Positions 5,250 through 26,387 of a stretch of DNA of 32,408 bases are shown piece by piece. Below the pieces are notes generated by a model. That model was not told the origin of the DNA. It saw nothing but the letters and a program-made list of their open reading frames with translations, and searched no databases. Made by a program: the position numbers and the translations under genes. The DNA comes from a virus: positions 1 through 32,408 of the IMG/VR virus record IMGVR_UViG_3300037541_000359; one strand, 5' to 3'. Every line of letters starts with the position of its first letter. Position 1 is the first letter of the stretch.

Positions 5250-5478
5250 CCAAATCCGTCCTGAACACGAGTACGATGGAGCGAATTGGCTAACGACAGG
5301 CCAAATCGCCACACGGTTAGGTGTCTCGTCGCGACTTGTGGCGAAATGGATAGACACGGGGAAACTCATTGGGTTTCGCTTGCCGTATTCAAAAGATCGT
5401 CGCGTTCACACGGACGTACTCGCAGAGTTTGAGGAAGCGCACGGGTTCAATCGTGCAAGAGGACGCAAGAACAAATGA
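5236..5478 (+). CDS. Small helix-turn-helix protein (excisionase/MerR-like fold)
   Basis: Residues 17-60 read WLTTGQIATRLGVSSRLVAKW.D.GKL.GFRLP.SKDRRVH, followed by a helix ending EEAHGF. This is the HTH_17 pattern in which a winged helix with a recognition helix is followed by a 'RR' hairpin and a short C-terminal helix. It binds DNA by family rule. Its role here could be transcription control or, less likely, excision, since no integrase is seen. It overlaps the end of the lipoprotein gene by 14 bases and the next gene by ATGA, so it belongs to the late-side operon. Confidence 0.7.
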   Translation: MKARNQIRPEHEYDGANWLTTGQIATRLGVSSRLVAKWIDTGKLIGFRLPYSKDRRVHTDVLAEFEEAHGFNRARGRKNK

Positions 5479-7412
5479 GCGGCGTTACGACTGCGGCGTG
5501 TTGCTGTGATGACGGTATTCGGTACTACGCGCTCAAGTGTCCTGATTTGATGCCCGAATGCTGTCCGTACAACGACTGCGAAACCGCTCCCGATCGAATT
5601 GATTTCTGCGAGGCGTACCTAAAGTTTCTTGGTATTCCTACACCGCCTGACTTTGATAAGTGCTACATCTTTTCATACAAGTGTTGTTTCTACAATCTAG
5701 TTGGAACGGACGTTGGACCATGCCCAAACCCTTCTAGTCCGTGGCCTGTGAACGTAGGAACGCTAGTAGCAGTGTTTGATAGAAACGGCGGGTCATGTTG
5801 TCGGCCAAATCCGTATGACACAACGCTGATGCCGCCAGGAACAATGGCGAATGTCATCATTCCTGGATGCGGCCCTGTCGTTGTAAACCCTGATCCCGTT
5901 GAATTTCCGTGCGTCGAATTGATTGCGGATTGCTACACGCTCTGCGATCAGTACGGAACGGTCAAAGGTAGACCCAACAAAATTACCTCACAACTATCGT
6001 TGTGTGTGACCGTTCCAGGTGTCCCGCCGAATGTGCGTTGCGATCACGGGCCACCTGATCGTGTGGTGAAAGTCACGGTGGATTGCGAAACTTTTCTTGG
6101 CTATTGCGAGCCGTGCAAGTTCCTAAACGGCGTACCCGTTCCCGATCCTAGCGGCGGCTACGACTGTCTCCCAAGCCCGTTTTCCTGTGCGAATCAGGTT
6201 GAACAGGAATTCATTGTCAAAGCACAATGCCCTGATTGCTGGGCATTCGTATCCCTTGATTGTTGCGGCGGATCAGATCCATGCGCTGACGATCCATTAG
6301 CGTGTGAGAATGGCAACGTGTTGGATTACCTCAAGTCATACACGGTTACGACGTGCTATTTGGTTCAAAACTGCACTAACGTCGGTACGGAGTATCAGCA
6401 GGAAGATTTGTTGCGGCTGTGGTTCAACAAGTGCATCCCATTGTCTGAAGGCGTTGACCCAACTGATCCCGTCGCACTAGATACATGGGTGCGAACGCAA
6501 TTCGTGACGTTCGGCGCGGGGTCTTACCCAACGTGCTGGGGGCCAATGTCAACGTACGACGTGAACATTTGCGGCCTACAGGTCAGAATGTTGTCAGGTA
6601 ACGCAACGCGACTTGCGGAGAAGGTCAACAACCGTATTGGGGCCAGCGTTCAGGTTGAGGTTCTCAATTCACCGTGGCCTGATCTGTTTTGGTTCGGGAA
6701 TCGGCAGGGCTGTGAGAAATGCGATTGGGAAGTTGCGAATCAGCGACCGCAATATCAAGAAGGAGATGAACTAGAAATTTCCTTTGTGCAATACATTCCT
6801 GCTACTGAACAGATTCAGGTGGTATTGCGCGGCGTAAGCAAGAAGAAATACGTTTGCTTTGAACAGCGTTTAGGGGTCATCACCGATCCGCAATACACGG
6901 TTGCTCCAAACTGCATATACAGTTTGGCTTTTGGTGTTCAGTTTCAAACGACCGTTAGCAAGATTTCAGCGGATCAAATTGGGTTCATTGATTGCTTGTC
7001 GATGCCTGAATACGCAAACGGTTCGCGGTACTCGTTTATGGAAACGGAGCAACCGCAAAGAGATATTGAGATTTGCGTTGCACCGAATGGTGCAATTCAG
7101 TTAGTGGAACAATGCCCTGCGCGTAGCGGATACCCGATGAGCGATGTCATTGTTCACGTCCCTCCTGCGCCGCCATACACCGTTCCAGGGTTTTATACGC
7201 TTTCAAATGGGATGAGCGGCTCGCTTTATGAATGCCGCTGCTTCCCGCTGCTGTATTCAGTCGCGCCGTGTTGCCCACCCGATTATCCCGATTGTTCGTT
7301 GTGGGATTTGGAGCATCCGACACCCATTCCATGCGTGTTGAATGCGTTTCAAAATCCTGCGATCTTCTGCCAAACTACAGCGCGTGACCTACGTTTGGAT
7401 CCATGCGGATGA
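5475..7412 (+). CDS. Cysteine-rich protein of unknown function (645 aa)
   Basis: About 50 of 645 residues are cysteine by hand count, with CCC near the N-terminus and many CC and CxxC pairs (PDCW, EPCK, CEKCD). There is no signal peptide or membrane helix. Pro, Tyr and Trp are also frequent. I do not recognise a family. Such cysteine density would suit metal binding or, if exposed in an oxidising setting, disulphide cross-links in a virion part. It starts by ATGA overlap from the HTH gene and overlaps the next, also CxxC-containing, gene by 10 bases. The pair follows the lysis cluster in the rightward operon. Confidence 0.65.
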   Translation: MSGVTTAACCCDDGIRYYALKCPDLMPECCPYNDCETAPDRIDFCEAYLKFLGIPTPPDFDKCYIFSYKCCFYNLVGTDVGPCPNPSSPWPVNVGTLVAVFDRNGGSCCRPNPYDTTLMPPGTMANVIIPGCGPVVVNPDPVEFPCVELIADCYTLCDQYGTVKGRPNKITSQLSLCVTVPGVPPNVRCDHGPPDRVVKVTVDCETFLGYCEPCKFLNGVPVPDPSGGYDCLPSPFSCANQVEQEFIVKAQCPDCWAFVSLDCCGGSDPCADDPLACENGNVLDYLKSYTVTTCYLVQNCTNVGTEYQQEDLLRLWFNKCIPLSEGVDPTDPVALDTWVRTQFVTFGAGSYPTCWGPMSTYDVNICGLQVRMLSGNATRLAEKVNNRIGASVQVEVLNSPWPDLFWFGNRQGCEKCDWEVANQRPQYQEGDELEISFVQYIPATEQIQVVLRGVSKKKYVCFEQRLGVITDPQYTVAPNCIYSLAFGVQFQTTVSKISADQIGFIDCLSMPEYANGSRYSFMETEQPQRDIEICVAPNGAIQLVEQCPARSGYPMSDVIVHVPPAPPYTVPGFYTLSNGMSGSLYECRCFPLLYSVAPCCPPDYPDCSLWDLEHPTPIPCVLNAFQNPAIFCQTTARDLRLDPCG

Positions 7413-11238: not shown

Positions 11239-11412
11239 ATGCCAAATGACACCCCAAAACCACATCGAAAAAAAATCGCGCAGGAAATCGTCATGCAAAT
11301 CCGACAGTTGCACAGCGAAGGAGTCAAGCAGCGCGAAATCGCTGCAAGGGTGCAGGTCAGTACCGCCGCTGTCTGTCGAATCCTCAAAAATCAACGGCAC
11401 AAAACGCAATGA
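11239..11412 (+). CDS. 57-aa helix-turn-helix protein
   Basis: The ATG is 9 bases after the previous stop. The product is basic: MPNDTPKPHRKKIAQ is followed by a clear helix-turn-helix (HSEGVKQREIAARVQVSTAA, then VCRIL) of the homeodomain-like/resolvase type, and ends NQRHKTQ. It is small enough to act as a dimeric repressor or cofactor, and is a candidate ligand for the shared 18-base palindrome at the early promoters. Its stop overlaps an ATG at 11409 (ATGA) that would be the natural start for RusA. Confidence 0.65.
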   Translation: MPNDTPKPHRKKIAQEIVMQIRQLHSEGVKQREIAARVQVSTAAVCRILKNQRHKTQ

Positions 11413-11842
11413 GTTTTTCGCGTTCGGCCACCCCCGCCCACAGGGCAGCAAGCGTCTAGTCAGACTGCGAAACGGGCGTACGGCAATGATTGATGCCAGC
11501 AAGGGGTTGAAAGAATGGCGAAATGCTGTGACTCGCGAAGCGCGGAAACATTGCGACCTACAGCCCGATGCAGATATCTACCTACGATTGATGTTCCTGT
11601 TTGCACGTCCGAAAAATCATTTCAACAAACGCGGAGTCAAACCAAACGCTCCGCTGCGACCAAGAAACGTGGACGTTGACAAACTTGCCCGTGCAGTCTG
11701 TGACGCTCTGACAGGCGTGGCATACAAGGATGACAGACAAATTTGCGTGTTGCTGGCGGAACGGCAATACACAGAAACAATGTGCGAAGAAGGCGTTTTC
11801 GTCGATGTTGTAAGCCTTGCGCCCTGCATGGACGTAGGGTAA
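11246..11842 (+). CDS. rusA: RusA-like Holliday junction resolvase, start unresolved
   Basis: From about base 11414 the product matches RusA: FFAFGHPRPQGSKR at the N-terminus, then basic residues, and the acidic core RNVDVDKLARAVCDAL with GVAYKDDRQI. RusA dimers cut four-way DNA junctions using these aspartates and Mg2+. The only in-frame ATG is 11246, which would add about 55 residues read out of frame through the HTH gene. The natural ATG at 11409 is one base out of frame and is followed by five T residues. One extra T, or a -1 slip on TTTTT, would give MSFFAFGHPRPQGSKR. The true start is therefore probably 11409. Confidence 0.75.
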   Translation: MTPQNHIEKKSRRKSSCKSDSCTAKESSSAKSLQGCRSVPPLSVESSKINGTKRNEFFAFGHPRPQGSKRLVRLRNGRTAMIDASKGLKEWRNAVTREARKHCDLQPDADIYLRLMFLFARPKNHFNKRGVKPNAPLRPRNVDVDKLARAVCDALTGVAYKDDRQICVLLAERQYTETMCEEGVFVDVVSLAPCMDVG

Positions 11843-16593: not shown

Positions 16594-19500
16594 ATGTGCA
16601 GCGGCAACCACACGCGATTTGGGCGCACCGAAACCAAGTACTTCGTGGGCGCAACGGAGATTCCGCAGAATCAACTGCGAGAAGTCTATAGCGTTGCTTT
16701 TGCACGTCTGTTCCCAAACAAGACTGAAGGATTTACCTTTCAGTCGGGCGCGAAAAAGGAAAAACTAGATGACCGCGCTTTTCAAACAGACGCGGAACTG
16801 CGAGCAATCTACACCGCACAGGCGAAGGATTATTTAGAATCGCCATCGTCGTTGGCAAAAAAACCACGCGAGGCAATCGCAGCAGCAGGTGGTGTAGATG
16901 CGTGGGTGAAACTCCAACTTGAAGAGTGGAAAACGTATTTGGATCGGGGGCAACCAAGATGGTTGGTGACATCGGCAAACCCACCACAAGCGATTGACCG
17001 CGTTATCAAGTGGGAGCAAAAAGAAAAGCAAACCATGTGCGGCGCAAAGTGTCGCGGGGCGCGTGGCCCAAACTGTGATTGCGTTTGCGAAGGCAAATTT
17101 CACGGCGTAGGTTCGGCTATGTCCCGCGCACGGTTTGCAAACTCATTTGTCGTGGAAAATTTGAAGGTGAAGAGCGGAGAAGACGAAGACAGCCGCAATT
17201 TTACGATGCGGTACAACGGCATTGAGTATTCAGGAAAACTGCGAAAGGGTTGGTCAAACCTTGGTGGATGGGGTTGGTACGCAAGCATTGAGGGACAACC
17301 TTCACCGCCGCAAATGATGGAAAAAACCATGCAAAAGGCGGTGCAATCTGCCGCATGGAGAATCAAGGCGCAAAGCAGCCGCGCACGGTTTGCTTCTTCT
17401 GATATCGACCTGCAACCTACCGCAGAGATGGCGGCAAACGCTGAACGCGGTCTGCGACTGCGCGAAGAACACGGGCGCGGCGGAACTGCCGTTGGCGTGG
17501 CTCGCGCTCGCGACATCAAGAACCGCGCAAACCTATCGCCTGAAACGGTGAAACGAATGCACTCGTTCTTCTCGCGTCACGAAGGAAACCAAGCGGGTGG
17601 TGAGGAAGACGCTGGGTATATCGCGTGGCTTCTGTGGGGTGGTGACGCTGGCAAGTCATGGTCAGCGCGGAAGGTCGAGCAAATCAACAAAACCGAATCT
17701 GCCCGTCAGGGCGTTGGGACATCTATGAACAAACACAACTTCGCGTTTGATCCATTCAATGCACCTGCGTTGCCAGCGAACTGGGACGGCAAGCGCATCA
17801 CACTGAATGGCAAGCAATACAAAGTCATGCAAGGTGCGAGCGGATTTGATCTCTACCGCTTGGACACAGGAACAAAGGTCAAAACCATGAGCGAATCCGA
17901 ACTCAAGGCAGCGTGGTCTAGCGGCAAGATCCGCGACATTTTCGCAAAGATTGACGGGTCTTTTAGTTCCATCAAGTTGAACGATCCTTACACCACGTCA
18001 GTCCCTCTGATTCTGAAGGACGGAACGCGAGTAAATGCCGTGCGCGTTGATGGCCGATGGTCAATCCCTTCGATTCCTGAAATCGCGCCGCGCCGCACCA
18101 GCATCTTCAATTTCGTTGAACGCATCAACAATGAAGGCTTTCGTCGCGCTGGCGCAAAGTCGGCGTTTGGACACGCATTGATTGGTTCCAAAGGAAACAA
18201 GCGCGTCTACCTTGGTGGCCCTGATGGAAACGGCAAGTTCAACGTCTTCTTGGTGCAAGTTGTCAACACAGGTGTTCCAAATGAGCAACCACAAGAGGAT
18301 TTGATTGAATTGAAGTCATTCGCAACGGAATCGCGAGCGCGAAGTGCAGCACAAAAAATGTTGTCTTCCCGCGCTGGCGCAAAGTCGGCGTTTGGCACAG
18401 ACACGCGCAGCGTCAACGCAACCGCGAAGCGATGGGTTGACATCCTTGGCCGTACGAAACCCGAAGCAGGATTTGAACAGTTTCACAATCGGTTGCGGAC
18501 GGAATTGCAACAGGTTGTACGCGATACCCAAGAACTCATCAGCAACCCAAAGTTGGAAGACGATTTGGGAGGGTGGACGTTCCAAGACTTGAGCAAGATT
18601 GTTCGTCAGGTCATTGGCGGCGGGTCATCAACCCTACGCTACGCACAAACCCTGCTGGGAGATATGAACTTCTCCCGCGCTGGCGCGAAGGGGCGTTTCG
18701 CGCTCATTCCTCTTTCCAAGATGCGTGAAATCAAGAAGAAGTACGAAGAATACCTGCGTTGGGTTGCGCGTGATCCCGAAGCGAATGACTATGGAAAGCC
18801 TATGTCATTCAATCAGTTTGTAGACAACTGGACTGATTCACACGATCTAGGAAAGGCTGACCCGATGCACTACTCTCGCGCTGCAAAGAAGGCAAACATG
18901 GCAAAGTGGGAAACAAACCTCACCAAGAAAAACGGTCAATCCATTGAGGAACACACCGCAAAGATCGGGAGCAATCAATGGATGATTGAAGTTGCCGAAT
19001 ACGACAGCGGAGTGAACGCAAAACTCTATCTGTGGGATGACCTGCGTGGAATGCGCTACATCAAGTCGGGCAACCTGCAACAGTTGCGAAACCTTGCAGA
19101 AAGTAGTTCCCGCAGCGATGCAAAGGGCATGGCGAATCTTGAGCGACTTGCCAATTACTCCCGCGCTGGAGGAAAGGCAAAGTTTGGAATGAGCGTTTCG
19201 CTTGAAAGTCTAAATTGGCCTACCGACGAAGGAAAGATTCGTGTAACGAGCCGCATTGATGGCCGCACTGTCAAATTTTTTGAAGGCGACAATGGTGATG
19301 AACACCGTCTTGTGCGTTTGGCAATCGCTAGCCTTGGAGGAGATGAGCAAAACATTGAATTCAATCCTGCCGCGAAACGAGCCTTGAAGATGTCCCGCGC
19401 TGGCGCAAAGTCAGAGTTTGCTGCATGGAAGAAAACACACTCTGAAGGGTGGGGTGATCTTTCCGAAGGTTGGGAAGCAACGATCAACAACAATCATTGG

Positions 19501-20367
19501 TCAATCGTTGTCAATGCACAACAGCCAAACCAATCGGACTTGTTGCTTCGTGGTCGCGATGGATCACCGCGAATCGTCAAACAAGGCTCCGTTGACAGCC
19601 TGAAGCGATACGCAGAAACCGTAAAGATGTCTCGCGCTGGCGGCAAGTCCAAGTTCGCTGCGAACTTTGAACAAAACTTGATGTCGCTCACGCGGCGTTT
19701 CGGGTTCAAGCCTAGCAAGGTAGAAGTCAATACCCGTTTCGGCGTGGCAACGATTTACTTCAACAACCAAAAGGGAGAGGCCACAAGGCTGGTAAGCAAA
19801 CTTGCTCCCGCAATGGCGCAAATGGGAATTCCCGCATCTGCAATCAAGGCGCGAGAGGTGCATTATCCTGCCGATGCCGATTTGGGCGACGATCAACCAA
19901 TGGATTTGAGCATCGTCACGATTGATTTCAATGTGTTGGACAAGCACAACCCCAAGGCTTTTTCCCGCGCTGGCGAAGCGGAAGCGTTCGCAATCGGCGC
20001 AGATTCCCGTGAGAGCAACCCGCAGAACGACGAGCGGCTGATGGAACTTGCAACCAAGGTTGGCAAGGAACACACCGTCAACCTGTTTGCACGTTGGGCT
20101 GAAGGAAAGGCCACGATGGGAGTGTCGCGTGTAATTCCTACTTCCAAGGAATCCAGCGGTGGCGGAACTTGGACAACCAAATCGCAGCGATACGGAGCGA
20201 AAAAGGCAACTGTTTCCTTCTACAACAAGGGAGGATTGATCGGTTCTGTTTATCAGGATCCCGACAACCCATCCATGTTCAAGGCATTCGAGGAGCCAGC
20301 AGGGCGCGAAATCGCAAGCGGATCAGAAGCATTGTGCAAGAGTGCGGTTGAGCAACTTGCTAACTGA
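16594..20367 (+). CDS. Large modular protein with repeated SRAGAK-type linkers (1257 aa)
   Basis: Eleven short motifs of the type SRAG(A/G)K-x-x-F-(A/G) split the chain into small domains: SRARFA at residues 177 and 262, then longer forms at 517, 592, 694, 856, 934, 1013 and 1124, with degenerate copies at 761 and 839. An N-terminal block has a cysteine cluster (MCGAKCRGARGPNCDCVC, 148-165, then KFHG). Residues 322-360 read MHSFFSRHEG... ...IAWLLWGGDAGKSW, a block seen in other phage proteins. The modules near 770-835 and 940-1010 are similar to each other. The order terminase, this gene, portal suggests a virion or ejected polyprotein; cleavage at the linkers is a hypothesis. There are no transmembrane segments. 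Confidence 0.8.
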   Translation: MCSGNHTRFGRTETKYFVGATEIPQNQLREVYSVAFARLFPNKTEGFTFQSGAKKEKLDDRAFQTDAELRAIYTAQAKDYLESPSSLAKKPREAIAAAGGVDAWVKLQLEEWKTYLDRGQPRWLVTSANPPQAIDRVIKWEQKEKQTMCGAKCRGARGPNCDCVCEGKFHGVGSAMSRARFANSFVVENLKVKSGEDEDSRNFTMRYNGIEYSGKLRKGWSNLGGWGWYASIEGQPSPPQMMEKTMQKAVQSAAWRIKAQSSRARFASSDIDLQPTAEMAANAERGLRLREEHGRGGTAVGVARARDIKNRANLSPETVKRMHSFFSRHEGNQAGGEEDAGYIAWLLWGGDAGKSWSARKVEQINKTESARQGVGTSMNKHNFAFDPFNAPALPANWDGKRITLNGKQYKVMQGASGFDLYRLDTGTKVKTMSESELKAAWSSGKIRDIFAKIDGSFSSIKLNDPYTTSVPLILKDGTRVNAVRVDGRWSIPSIPEIAPRRTSIFNFVERINNEGFRRAGAKSAFGHALIGSKGNKRVYLGGPDGNGKFNVFLVQVVNTGVPNEQPQEDLIELKSFATESRARSAAQKMLSSRAGAKSAFGTDTRSVNATAKRWVDILGRTKPEAGFEQFHNRLRTELQQVVRDTQELISNPKLEDDLGGWTFQDLSKIVRQVIGGGSSTLRYAQTLLGDMNFSRAGAKGRFALIPLSKMREIKKKYEEYLRWVARDPEANDYGKPMSFNQFVDNWTDSHDLGKADPMHYSRAAKKANMAKWETNLTKKNGQSIEEHTAKIGSNQWMIEVAEYDSGVNAKLYLWDDLRGMRYIKSGNLQQLRNLAESSSRSDAKGMANLERLANYSRAGGKAKFGMSVSLESLNWPTDEGKIRVTSRIDGRTVKFFEGDNGDEHRLVRLAIASLGGDEQNIEFNPAAKRALKMSRAGAKSEFAAWKKTHSEGWGDLSEGWEATINNNHWSIVVNAQQPNQSDLLLRGRDGSPRIVKQGSVDSLKRYAETVKMSRAGGKSKFAANFEQNLMSLTRRFGFKPSKVEVNTRFGVATIYFNNQKGEATRLVSKLAPAMAQMGIPASAIKAREVHYPADADLGDDQPMDLSIVTIDFNVLDKHNPKAFSRAGEAEAFAIGADSRESNPQNDERLMELATKVGKEHTVNLFARWAEGKATMGVSRVIPTSKESSGGGTWTTKSQRYGAKKATVSFYNKGGLIGSVYQDPDNPSMFKAFEEPAGREIASGSEALCKSAVEQLAN
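18145..18170 (+). repeat. Linker repeat in modular protein, copy with exact DNA match
   Basis: These 26 bases are identical to 18370-18395 and encode the RAGAKSAF core of the linker. The other linkers differ at synonymous and third positions, so this pair looks like a recent duplication or conversion. Confidence 0.8.
18370..18395 (+). repeat. Linker repeat in modular protein, second exact copy
   Basis: Identical to 18145-18170. The two copies bracket a module of about 66 residues, which could be lost by recombination between them. Confidence 0.8.
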
Positions 20368-23653: not shown

Positions 23654-23669
23654 TAAGATGGAGACACAA

Positions 23670-24896
23670 ATGGCACAGCCATCACACAAAATTTCAGAGA
23701 ATGGCGACAAGGTTGTGATTCACGATCTTGAGGTGTTTTCTGCATATGACCCTGCGATTGACGGCGATCACGATGACGAATTGAAGACTTTCGACAACGA
23801 TCGCGTTCAGGACATCGTGAACAGCACACAGCGGTATATGCAAAAGGGATCATTGCCGCGTCTTGTCGTGATGCACGAACGTGACGGTAATGAGCCGAAA
23901 GCGTCCGTTGGTCGATTCACGAAAATCAACTATCAGGAACGCAATGGTGTCGGATACATCGTTGGTGATTGCGAGGTTGAGCGCAGCGCGTTCGACAAAT
24001 TGCTTGCAACCAACGCCTTCCCTCGACGTAGCGCAGAGATTTGGCAGGATCACAACCATCTGTCTGAAGTCGCGTTGCTAGGTCGCGAAACGCCACGCCG
24101 CCCATTACCTGATACACATTTCACCCGAAAAGGTGAGCGAGTCACGTTTTCCCGTCCACTCCGCTTCGATATGGGGACAGTCGGCGGCGGTCTTTCCACG
24201 TTTGTCCCTAGTACGAAGGACACTCACATGGCAGGTGATCAATCTGATCTGCGAGATGAGATGTCATCCCTGAAAGCGGCGATGGATGAACTCCGTGGTG
24301 AGTTCAAAAAGCGTTTCGCAGAAGATGATGACGATGAAATCGACATGGGCGCATACGAGCGCGATGACGATGACAAGGAAACGATGGAAGCCGATGACAT
24401 GATTCAGCAGCAGTTCGCTGAAGAAATGCCTGAAGAAATTCACATCGACATCGGTTCACACGACAACGAAGGCGAAGAAGAAGACGAGGAAGAGGACGCG
24501 ATGTTCCCTGCTTCGCGTAGGGGAACTCCCGATGTCTTTGCGATGCGTCGTGAAAACGCTCGCATGGCGCGTGAACTCTCGTCGCTTCGTCGCGAACTCT
24601 CCCGCGAAAAGTTCTCGCGTGAACTTGATTCGATGGAACAAGAGGGCTACCGCATTCCAGCGGAACGCCGCGATGCGTTGCTTGGCGAGTTGATTGCTTC
24701 GCGCAATCCCTCGCAGTTGATCGACACTTGGCGCGATTTGTTTGCGCGTGACCCTATGGGTGTTCGCATCGACATGAGCCGCGCCGCGCTCCCATCTTCG
24801 CCAATCGACAACCGTGAAATTACTGATCTTGTGCGCGAATTCGCTGGCAAGCCCGAAGAATTCCGCAAGGCAATCAATTCCCGCATCAAGCGGTAA
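23670..24896 (+). CDS. Mu I-like prohead protease fused to scaffold (408 aa)
   Basis: The ATG at 23670 is chosen over 23610 and 23658 because GGAG lies 6 bases upstream. The N-terminal 160 residues resemble the Mu I-type protease: VVIHDLEVFSA, LVVMHERDG (His69), ASVGRF, and FPRRSAEIW (Ser121) followed by VALLG.ETPRRP. His69 and Ser121 are the likely catalytic pair. After residue 185 comes a very acidic, coiled-coil scaffold. Between them is GTVGGGLSTFVPSTKD, nearly repeated at the start of the major capsid protein. The scaffold probably also starts separately at 24228. Confidence 0.78.
   Translation: MAQPSHKISENGDKVVIHDLEVFSAYDPAIDGDHDDELKTFDNDRVQDIVNSTQRYMQKGSLPRLVVMHERDGNEPKASVGRFTKINYQERNGVGYIVGDCEVERSAFDKLLATNAFPRRSAEIWQDHNHLSEVALLGRETPRRPLPDTHFTRKGERVTFSRPLRFDMGTVGGGLSTFVPSTKDTHMAGDQSDLRDEMSSLKAAMDELRGEFKKRFAEDDDDEIDMGAYERDDDDKETMEADDMIQQQFAEEMPEEIHIDIGSHDNEGEEEDEEEDAMFPASRRGTPDVFAMRRENARMARELSSLRRELSREKFSRELDSMEQEGYRIPAERRDALLGELIASRNPSQLIDTWRDLFARDPMGVRIDMSRAALPSSPIDNREITDLVREFAGKPEEFRKAINSRIKR
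24228..24896 (+). CDS. Nested scaffold protein from internal start (222 aa)
   Basis: An in-frame ATG at 24228 has AAGGA seven bases upstream, a good ribosome site inside the protease gene. The product would be MAGDQSDLRDEM plus the acidic and coiled-coil region (SSLRRELSREKFSRELDSME). This matches the lambda C/Nu3 and Mu I/Z design, where extra scaffold is made from inside the protease gene. Direct evidence is the ribosome site and the domain boundary; separate synthesis is inferred. Confidence 0.6.
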   Translation: MAGDQSDLRDEMSSLKAAMDELRGEFKKRFAEDDDDEIDMGAYERDDDDKETMEADDMIQQQFAEEMPEEIHIDIGSHDNEGEEEDEEEDAMFPASRRGTPDVFAMRRENARMARELSSLRRELSREKFSRELDSMEQEGYRIPAERRDALLGELIASRNPSQLIDTWRDLFARDPMGVRIDMSRAALPSSPIDNREITDLVREFAGKPEEFRKAINSRIKR

Positions 24897-25334: not shown

Positions 25335-26387
25335 ATGGCATTCACAGTTGTTGGTGGCGGTCTTTCCACCTACATCCCTTCAACGAATGATCTCGCAACT
25401 GGCGCGTTGCAAGTTGAATTTACGCGCAGCGTCAATTCGTTTGCTCTAACGCGTTACGCGCAAATTGTTCCTACGACCAAGATGACGGGTTTCTACCTGC
25501 GTCAAGATGTTGCGGACAACGTGCGTTTGACGAATGACAGGGAATTCGCTTGGCCGCTGGGTAACGACCGCCCAACAGGTAAGCAGAATTCATTCGACTT
25601 CATTCAGTACGTTACGCAACGATACGCGTTCCCGTTCTACATTCCGCAGGAAACGACACAGCAAGCCGCGTGGGATGTTGTTGCACAACACGCTCGCAGC
25701 AAGGCGCAGTTGGCGATGACAGCACGAACGAATCGCGCTGCATCTGTTCTGACGGATTCAACCGTGTGGGGCAACAATTACGCTGCATTCTTGGCTTCTG
25801 CGCCGTTGTCGCTGCCTCCAGGTTCATCTTGGACGGATTCCACTGCGGGGAACGCCTACATTCAGAAGACCATTCAAAAGGTCATGCGTCTCGTCTCGTT
25901 GTCGAGCGGCGGCGCGGTTGCTCCAAATCAACTGATGATGGTGATCAGTCCTGACGTTGCCAACGTCATTTCGCAAGCACCTGAAGTCAAGGAATACGTC
26001 AAGAACTACCCACAAGCGTTGTCATTCCTTCAAGGAAGCGACACGTTTAGCCGCTGGGGAATCCCATCGACGCTGTTCGGTCTTGGCGATGTCATCGTCG
26101 ATGACTCCGTGAAGGTCACATCGAAGAAGGGTGCTGCAACGCAAACTTCCGCTTATGTGTACGGAAACGGCGCGTACTTTGTCAGCCGCCCTGGTGGTCT
26201 TGTTGGCGTTGAAGGCGCAACTTCGTTCTCTACGGTGCAAATCTTTGCATACGAAGACATGACCGTTGAACAGTTTAACGATCCGATGAACCGCCGCATT
26301 GAAGGCCGCGTCATTGACAACAGCGTTGCTGCTGTTGTTGCGCCTGTCGGCGGATTCGCAATCGGTAACGTTGTCAGCGGTTCCTAA
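25335..26387 (+). CDS. Major capsid protein (350 aa)
   Basis: It has a strong ribosome site (GAGGG) and lies after protease/scaffold and decoration genes. Features fit an HK97-fold shell protein: an N-terminal arm, a region with ETTQQAAWDVVAQHARSKAQ (long spine-type helix), MMVISPDVANVISQAPEVKE, and a C-terminal domain with SAYVYGNGAYFVSRPGGLVG and FAYEDMTVEQFNDP. No large N-terminal delta domain is present because the scaffold is encoded separately. The first 20 residues contain VVGGGLSTYIPSTND, shared with the scaffold. No family name can be given without a search. Confidence 0.82.
   Translation: MAFTVVGGGLSTYIPSTNDLATGALQVEFTRSVNSFALTRYAQIVPTTKMTGFYLRQDVADNVRLTNDREFAWPLGNDRPTGKQNSFDFIQYVTQRYAFPFYIPQETTQQAAWDVVAQHARSKAQLAMTARTNRAASVLTDSTVWGNNYAAFLASAPLSLPPGSSWTDSTAGNAYIQKTIQKVMRLVSLSSGGAVAPNQLMMVISPDVANVISQAPEVKEYVKNYPQALSFLQGSDTFSRWGIPSTLFGLGDVIVDDSVKVTSKKGAATQTSAYVYGNGAYFVSRPGGLVGVEGATSFSTVQIFAYEDMTVEQFNDPMNRRIEGRVIDNSVAAVVAPVGGFAIGNVVSGS

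What the first reader, a model, noticed from the sequence alone, without database searches (positions are those of the whole stretch)
16594..20367. Beads-on-a-string protein with eleven SRAGAK-type linkers between terminase and portal
The 1257-residue protein is divided by a repeated short motif (SRAG-A/G-K-x-x-F-A/G, with two SRARFA forms and two degenerate ones) into modules of roughly 60-130 residues, with one longer stretch. The linkers are far more alike than the modules. This looks like a polyprotein with repeated processing or docking sites, perhaps cut by the Mu I-like protease encoded downstream to release internal head or ejected proteins. I know of no described phage system with exactly this layout. 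The cleavage idea is inference.
Basis: partly seen in the sequence, partly recalled or inferred. Interest (0 to 1): 0.8.

Follow-up and report, generated by a model that had tools for sequence, protein, structure and literature searches.

The report
In-frame cassette array in phage heads
In a large group of uncultured phages, one head-region gene is a string of small swappable protein domains joined by a short tag that resembles the junctions inside the phage's own probable head protease, so the phages may carry a fast-changing set of delivered proteins made as one polyprotein.

Summary
In detail: 11 SRAG-type linkers divide a 1257-aa ORF between terminase and portal. Pulling about 80 related IMG/VR contigs shows what it is. 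The gene is an in-frame cassette array. Complete arrays run from 91 to 1297 aa with 1-12 linkers. I found 419 modules in 179 families, most without any database match. The end modules are fixed and the interior is promiscuous: phages with identical portals carry almost wholly different interiors. Single modules enter or leave exactly at a 15-21-nt seam (TCCCGCCCCGGCGCGAAGGCG and variants), which is fixed at synonymous sites and occurs only in these arrays (237 of 237 hits in 1.0 Mb). Independently, the linker's protein motif RxGxxxxF[A/G/S] is otherwise found only in the probable head protease-scaffold. There it marks two predicted-disordered domain junctions (84 hits; 2 hits in about 186,000 aa of all other genes), with ordinary synonymous drift. 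Best reading: a cargo polyprotein cut at each linker by the phage's own head protease, as T4 internal proteins are, whose linker DNA doubles as the shuffling seam. The array structure is shown. Cleavage, packaging and ejection are inferred. The 'protease' has no significant match to any known protease family.

The parts
16594..20367 (+). cassette-array polyprotein gene (1257 aa, 11 linkers)
   Evidence: same position in relatives
16594..17121 (+). fixed N-terminal module (family 3) with Cys-rich motif MCGAKCRGARGPNCDCVCEG
   Evidence: family 3 always first in its arrays; weak PHROG 6842 match at residues 138-171
17122..17139 (+). linker 1, SRARFA
17377..17394 (+). linker 2, SRARFA (15 nt identical to linker 1)
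17401..17700 (+). conserved RGGTxVGVARARD domain (PHROG 2859), first or near-first module in most arrays
18142..18171 (+). linker 3, RRAGAKSAFG
18367..18396 (+). linker 4, SRAGAKSAFG
18673..18702 (+). linker 5, SRAGAKGRFA
18865..19190 (+). module of family 2, the commonest interior module (16 copies), with flanking linkers; predicted five-strand plus helix domain
18874..18903 (+). linker 6, degenerate SRAAKKANMA
19108..19137 (+). linker 7, degenerate SRSDAKGMAN
19159..19188 (+). linker 8, SRAGGKAKFG
19393..19422 (+). linker 9, SRAGAKSEFA
19630..19659 (+). linker 10, SRAGGKSKFA
19963..19992 (+). linker 11, SRAGEAEAFA; the following module is shared with L020, the relative with the closest portal
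23661..24896 (+). probable head protease-scaffold fusion
   Evidence: gene order as in Mu (portal, MuF, protease-scaffold, capsid); domain layout in model; no significant family match
24120..24155 (+). linker-like junction 1, FTRKGERVTFSR, just after the ordered N-terminal domain
24513..24542 (+). linker-like junction 2, SRRGTPDVFA, just before the scaffold helix
11863..12657 (+). ERF single-strand annealing recombinase (PF04404), candidate agent of seam recombination
   Evidence: E 5e-19
11246..11842 (+). RusA-type resolvase (PF05866)
   Evidence: E 1e-14

Best explanation
The gene is an in-frame cassette array. Small, separately folded modules (median 72 aa) are strung on one reading frame between fixed end modules and joined by a roughly 10-residue linker with two overlapping jobs. 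At the protein level the linker (S-R-x-G-x4-F/M) is a recognition site of the phage's own head protease, the same motif the protease-scaffold carries at its own two domain junctions; inside the prohead the chain would be cut into a set of small internal proteins. At the DNA level the first seven codons are a nucleotide-fixed seam along which homologous annealing (probably by the phage's ERF recombinase) adds, removes and swaps modules without breaking frame. The released modules most likely enter the host with the DNA and act early, for example against host defences, in the way T4 internal proteins do. Shown: the array, the fixed ends, the turnover, the seam and the shared motif. Inferred: cleavage, packaging, ejection, and the functions of the modules.
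For: Array and turnover: 76 array proteins with over 300 linkers against 0.3 expected in shuffles; 419 modules in 179 families; fixed ends and up to 12 different neighbours on each side for one interior family. Portal-identical pairs have different interiors (L082/L105, L053/L055), and modules 93-100% identical occur between phages whose portals are only 77-84% identical. Clean one-module indels of 192 nt (L071/L072) and 237 nt (L059/L086) have both breakpoints in the seam. Seam: codon identity 0.94 within and 0.92 between genomes against 0.40 expected; the core 15-mer lies only in arrays, 237 of 237 hits in 1.01 Mb; 131 of 133 loci found by linker DNA pattern or seam alone encode in-frame linkers. 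Protein site: RxGxxxxF[AGS] gives 125 hits in array homologues, 84 in the protease-scaffold and 2 in about 186,000 aa of all other genes. The protease junctions use freely varying synonymous codons, and in the linkers the F codon lies outside the seam and varies (TTT 59, TTC 48), so protein and DNA constraints have different extents. The model puts both junctions at domain borders, in or at the edge of disorder. Modules are under purifying selection: median dN/dS 0.18 over 119 pairs in 41 families. A distant clade has separate short genes with a KHGQPERF leader, and its junction 1 reads KHGSKVVF. ERF and RusA are present; ERF-family annealing of diverged sequences is documented (PMC3945230).
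Against: No cleavage, virion or ejection data exist. The two protease junctions are two independent events inherited by all relatives, not 84. The protease assignment is by position and layout only. In the distant clade junction 2 no longer fits the motif. Some linkers are degenerate, and some leaders keep the seam DNA but have lost the arginine (AHPGAK). No module reaches a curated cut-off in Pfam, and PADLOC gave one weak match, so an anti-defence role has no direct support.
Confidence: 0.6

Rival explanations
1. The linker is a docking or packaging tag, not a cleavage site: each copy binds the scaffold or shell so that a long uncut chain is loaded into the prohead.
For: The motif lies in the protease-scaffold as well as in the array; repeated docking peptides are a known cargo-loading design (own knowledge); nothing here shows cutting.
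Against: A docking tag has no evident reason to sit at two domain borders of the protease-scaffold itself, one of them directly behind the putative protease domain; arrays with a single linker exist (L066, L067).
Confidence: 0.2
2. The linker is only a recombination seam or a selfish DNA repeat; its protein sequence has no function.
For: The seam is nucleotide-fixed and exclusive to arrays; a leader keeps the seam after losing the arginine.
Against: The F/M residue is conserved outside the fixed DNA stretch; the same motif with unconstrained codons is kept in the protease-scaffold; window-type linkers keep the motif with a different DNA core (CGCGCTGGCGC).
Confidence: 0.1
3. It is a structural scaffold or internal-matrix protein built of repeats, with no delivered cargo.
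For: Position between terminase and portal; RGGT-domain relatives are fused to capsid, portal or protease proteins in other phages.
Against: Length varies from 91 to 1297 aa among relatives, and interiors of portal-identical phages differ almost completely, which an essential scaffold would hardly tolerate.
Confidence: 0.08
4. Assembly artefact: metagenomic contigs joined wrongly at the short repeats.
For: All relatives with linkers are metagenomic contigs; the repeat is shared by many genomes.
Against: The window's array is identical over 980 and 1216 residues in contigs from two other metagenomes; a 21-nt repeat is shorter than a sequencing read (own knowledge); the arrays stay open in one frame, and their modules are under purifying selection.
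Confidence: 0.02

Closest known systems
T4/T-even internal proteins (IPI, IPII, IPIII) with capsid targeting sequence
   Same: A highly diverse set of small head-encapsidated proteins with only a short conserved sequence in common; IPI is proteolysed to a mature form and injected; thought to track host defences (PMC3012670).
   Different: Separate genes with an N-terminal tag. Here up to 13 modules share one ORF and the tag lies between modules; no sequence relationship was tested or claimed.
Polyvalent proteins of phages and conjugative elements (Iyer et al. 2017, PMC5512222), including P1 DarB and DdrB
   Same: Multidomain proteins of variable architecture encoded near head genes; the authors liken them to polyproteins released by peptidases.
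   Different: Those are joined effector domains, some with an embedded peptidase. Here the modules are small, match no Pfam family, carry no detectable peptidase, and a uniform linker joins them.
Head protease-scaffold fusions (Mu gpI/Z type)
   Same: Same gene order, portal-MuF-protease/scaffold-capsid; N-terminal domain, disordered stretch and helical scaffold.
   Different: No significant sequence or profile match; no second substrate polyprotein is known to me in Mu.
Phage mosaicism at short conserved boundary sequences with Rad52-like (Red-beta, ERF, Sak) annealing
   Same: Short shared DNA at module borders; relaxed recombination by phage annealases (PMC3945230).
   Different: There whole genes or larger segments are exchanged. 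Here the seam lies inside one ORF, is repeated up to a dozen times, and is part of the coding sequence.
Integron gene-cassette arrays
   Same: Open-ended arrays of exchangeable units, each bearing a common short sequence (own knowledge).
   Different: Units here are in-frame protein domains in one gene, not separate genes; no integrase was looked for specifically and none was noticed in the window.

Membership tests
T4-type internal (ejected) head proteins | small diverse proteins sharing only a short conserved tag | tested here: met
   179 module families, one linker
T4-type internal (ejected) head proteins | separate genes, each with an N-terminal targeting sequence | tested here: not met
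   one ORF with internal linkers in the main clade; separate leader genes only in a distant clade
T4-type internal (ejected) head proteins | cut by the head protease, packaged and injected | not testable with these tools
   only the shared junction motif bears on it
Polyvalent proteins | many domains in one polypeptide with variable architecture, encoded with head genes | tested here: met
Polyvalent proteins | known effector-type or large-polyvalent-associated domains | tested here: not met
   no Pfam match that reaches a curated cut-off in 19 array proteins
Polyvalent proteins | embedded peptidase domain | tested here: not met
   no Pfam peptidase match
Mu gpI/Z-type head protease-scaffold (window 23661-24896) | position between MuF and major capsid genes | tested here: met
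Mu gpI/Z-type head protease-scaffold (window 23661-24896) | significant sequence or profile similarity to a known head protease | tested here: not met
   Pfam, NCBIfam, PDB profile, hhalign against Mu gpI; Foldseek on a model of mean pLDDT 58 was uninformative
Mu gpI/Z-type head protease-scaffold (window 23661-24896) | catalytic Ser and His in a protease fold | tested here: inconclusive
   H72, S124 and H133 invariant in 25 relatives, but many other residues are invariant as well and no fold match was found

The most novel reading that the evidence does not exclude
A previously undescribed genetic device: a single reading frame that works as an open-ended, frame-safe cassette array, in which one short sequence is at once the recombination seam for swapping modules and the cleavage site by which the phage's own head protease releases them as a changeable payload of ejected proteins.
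Probability: 0.5. Interest if true: 0.95.

Novelty: categorically new. Interest (0 to 1): 0.86.

Why it matters
Phages must change their early-acting proteins quickly, and most such proteins are orphans that are hard to find. If this reading is right, each array is a labelled list of such proteins, delimited by a motif that can be searched for, with 179 families found here, most without a known relative. It would also be a natural system for frame-safe protein shuffling, and would suggest that a phage head protease can serve as a general polyprotein processor. The array and its turnover stand on sequence evidence alone, whatever the linker turns out to do.

Tried and rejected
Pfam, PHROGs, PADLOC and NCBIfam on the whole protein and on relatives: only PHROG 2859 (RGGT domain), PHROG 9437 (one module, resembling hypothetical proteins in Rhizobium and other phages) and weak hits. 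The single-protein query in viral contigs found only near-identical copies, and genome contigs found no relative with either query, so no host is known. Apart from the identical copies, the other hits of the first linker DNA scan lay in unrelated-looking frames of other genomes; only L017 was a real relative. First module clustering by single linkage chained through composite segments and was redone with two-sided coverage. A multi-module alignment for folding misaligned at the linkers and was replaced by one module. Foldseek with the protease model and with the module gave nothing significant. Literature searches found no description of such an array; the library lacks most subscription papers. 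A first reading of L020 as lacking linkers was wrong: it has degenerate ones.
Full report
1. The observation. The ORF at 16594-20367 encodes 1257 aa. Eleven linkers are present at residues 177, 262, 517, 592, 694, 761, 839, 856, 934, 1013 and 1124. Eight fit one strict pattern; composition shuffles give a mean of 0.0012 and never more than one. The linkers are repeated as DNA: TCCCGCGCTGGCGCAAAGTC with up to three mismatches occurs six times in the window, all in this gene, against 0.01 expected, and the R, A and G codons of the SRAG core are nearly always CGC, GCT and GGC.

2. Finding relatives. The protein as a single query finds only identical copies in two other metagenomes. In cultured phages it finds essentially only the RGGTxVGVARARD domain (residues 270-369), a head-region domain that occurs alone or in proteins annotated as capsid or portal-MuF. 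A scan of viral contigs with the linker's DNA pattern found L017, with terminase 69% and portal 83% identical and two array genes between them that use SRPGAKAKFA linkers and mostly other modules. Alignments of terminase and portal then brought in over 80 related contigs, but none from prokaryote genomes. The host is unknown.

3. It is a cassette array. The gene between terminase and portal varies from about 90 to 1297 aa. A linker profile finds over 300 linkers in 76 array proteins, against 0.3 in shuffles. Cutting at linkers gives 419 modules (median 72 aa) in 179 families, 95 seen once. Families 3 and 0 stand first and families 1, 12 and 11 mostly last; interior families have many different neighbours, for example 12 upstream and 12 downstream for family 2. 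Some relatives carry a second array between MuF and the protease-scaffold, drawing on the same module families.

4. Turnover is fast and exact. Phages with 100% identical portals (L082/L105, L053/L055) have different interiors, and modules 93-100% identical occur between phages with portals 77-84% identical. The phage whose portal is closest to the window's (L020, 94%) shares a module with it after linker 11, but its other modules look different by eye. L059/L086 differ by one 237-nt unit and L071/L072 by one 192-nt unit, with both breakpoints in the shared core CGCCCCGGCGCGAAG. An almost empty locus with one linker (L066, L067) and versions with more modules (L099, L049, L064, L098) have near-identical ends. 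Modules are real proteins: median dN/dS 0.18 over 119 pairs from 41 families, every pair below 1.

5. Two constraints of different extent. In the linkers, same-residue codons are identical in 94% of within-genome pairs and 92% of between-genome pairs; codon usage of the same genes predicts 40%, and the largest of 200 simulations was 45%. The fixed stretch is TCC CGC CCC GGC GCG AAG GCG; the conserved F or M that comes after one more codon is outside it, and the F codons vary. The 15-nt core, with up to one mismatch, occurs 237 times in 1.01 Mb of family contigs. The script counted 226 inside catalogued arrays; I read the other 11 by eye as further array genes or duplicate contigs that had not been catalogued. 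Scans of the viral collection with linker DNA patterns return 133 new loci, of which 131 encode in-frame linkers and 131 carry genes of this head module, including relatives with terminase and portal near 40% identity.

6. The link to the protease-scaffold. The gene at 23661-24896 holds the motif twice with the same spacing (R, G two later, F seven later): FTRKGERVTFSR and SRRGTPDVFA. Counted over homologues of every window gene in about 70 contigs, RxGxxxxF[AGS] gives 125 hits in arrays, 84 in the protease-scaffold and 2 in about 186,000 aa of everything else (the sum is mine). The 84 are two sites inherited by descent, so the independent evidence is two sites in one protein of about 410 aa, where the background rate predicts about 0.004. 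Their codons drift normally, so they were not recently copied from an array. In the AlphaFold2 model (25 sequences, mean pLDDT 58, N-terminal domain mostly 70-83) site 1 lies in the low-confidence stretch 140-195 right after the N-terminal domain, and site 2 (285-294) spans the border between low confidence (220-289) and the scaffold helix from 290. In a distant clade junction 1 reads KHGSKVVF and separate short genes begin with a KHGQPERF leader; junction 2 there no longer fits. The parallel change at junction 1 is suggestive; it is one lineage.

7. What the modules are. The family 2 module is predicted as a compact five-strand plus helix domain with disordered linker ends (mean pLDDT 73; core blocks 80-90, ends below 50); Foldseek finds no significant relative. 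No array protein tested has a Pfam match at the curated cut-off, and PADLOC gives one weak match. One module matches the whole of PHROG 9437 and resembles hypothetical proteins of other phages.

8. Mechanism. The evidence fits a cargo polyprotein processed by the head protease, whose linker DNA serves as a shuffling seam. The phage encodes an ERF annealase and a RusA resolvase, and an ERF-family recombinase is known to act efficiently on diverged DNA (PMC3945230). T4 internal proteins are the nearest functional model: a diverse set with only a short targeting sequence in common, of which IPI is injected (PMC3012670). Confidence by step (my estimates): cassette array 0.97; seam recombination 0.75; linker as protease site 0.65-0.7; packaging and ejection 0.5; anti-defence role 0.35.

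9. Limits. The protease label rests on gene order, as in Mu, and on layout; family and profile searches were negative. All relatives with linkers are metagenomic contigs, though identical arrays in three metagenomes argue against misassembly. The literature searched is open-access only, so an earlier description cannot be excluded. 'Categorically new' is chosen because each known kind compared fails at least one defining feature; if polyvalent proteins are defined loosely, 'new variant' would be the alternative.

Noticed in passing
L064:6348-7790, L065:12610-13974, L048:12604-13746, L046:9224-11206, L061:8455-9693: A second array gene between MuF and the protease-scaffold in several relatives, using the same linker and sharing module families with the first array; absent from the window.
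   Followed up: partly
window 24177-24224 and 25335-25400: The protease-scaffold contains TVGGGLSTFVPSTKDT, closely resembling the N-terminus of the downstream probable major capsid protein (TVVGGGLSTYIPSTND); conserved in relatives. Possibly a scaffold segment that mimics the capsid arm.
   Followed up: no
L242:8816-9766 (reverse-complement coordinates) and L222:6194-6982: A distant clade has short head-region genes that start with a leader such as MNTEDKFYFGKHGQPERFG, like few-module genes with an N-terminal tag.
   Followed up: partly
L105, L083, L090, L081, L111, first linker: The leader reads AHPGAKA: the seam DNA CCCCGGCGCGAAGGCG is kept although the motif arginine is lost.
   Followed up: no
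L066, L067, L082 and others, C-terminus of the array: The commonest last module (family 1) ends in GKPQKQAVAIALDLERRGEL; a similar last module in L024 weakly matches PHROG 2423. Role unknown.
   Followed up: no
window 5475-7412: A 645-aa very cysteine-rich ORF without a homologue in the fetched relatives.
   Followed up: no
L034 and L039: Portals 99.3% identical but terminases only 74% identical, so larger recombination boundaries also fall in or near the array locus.
   Followed up: no
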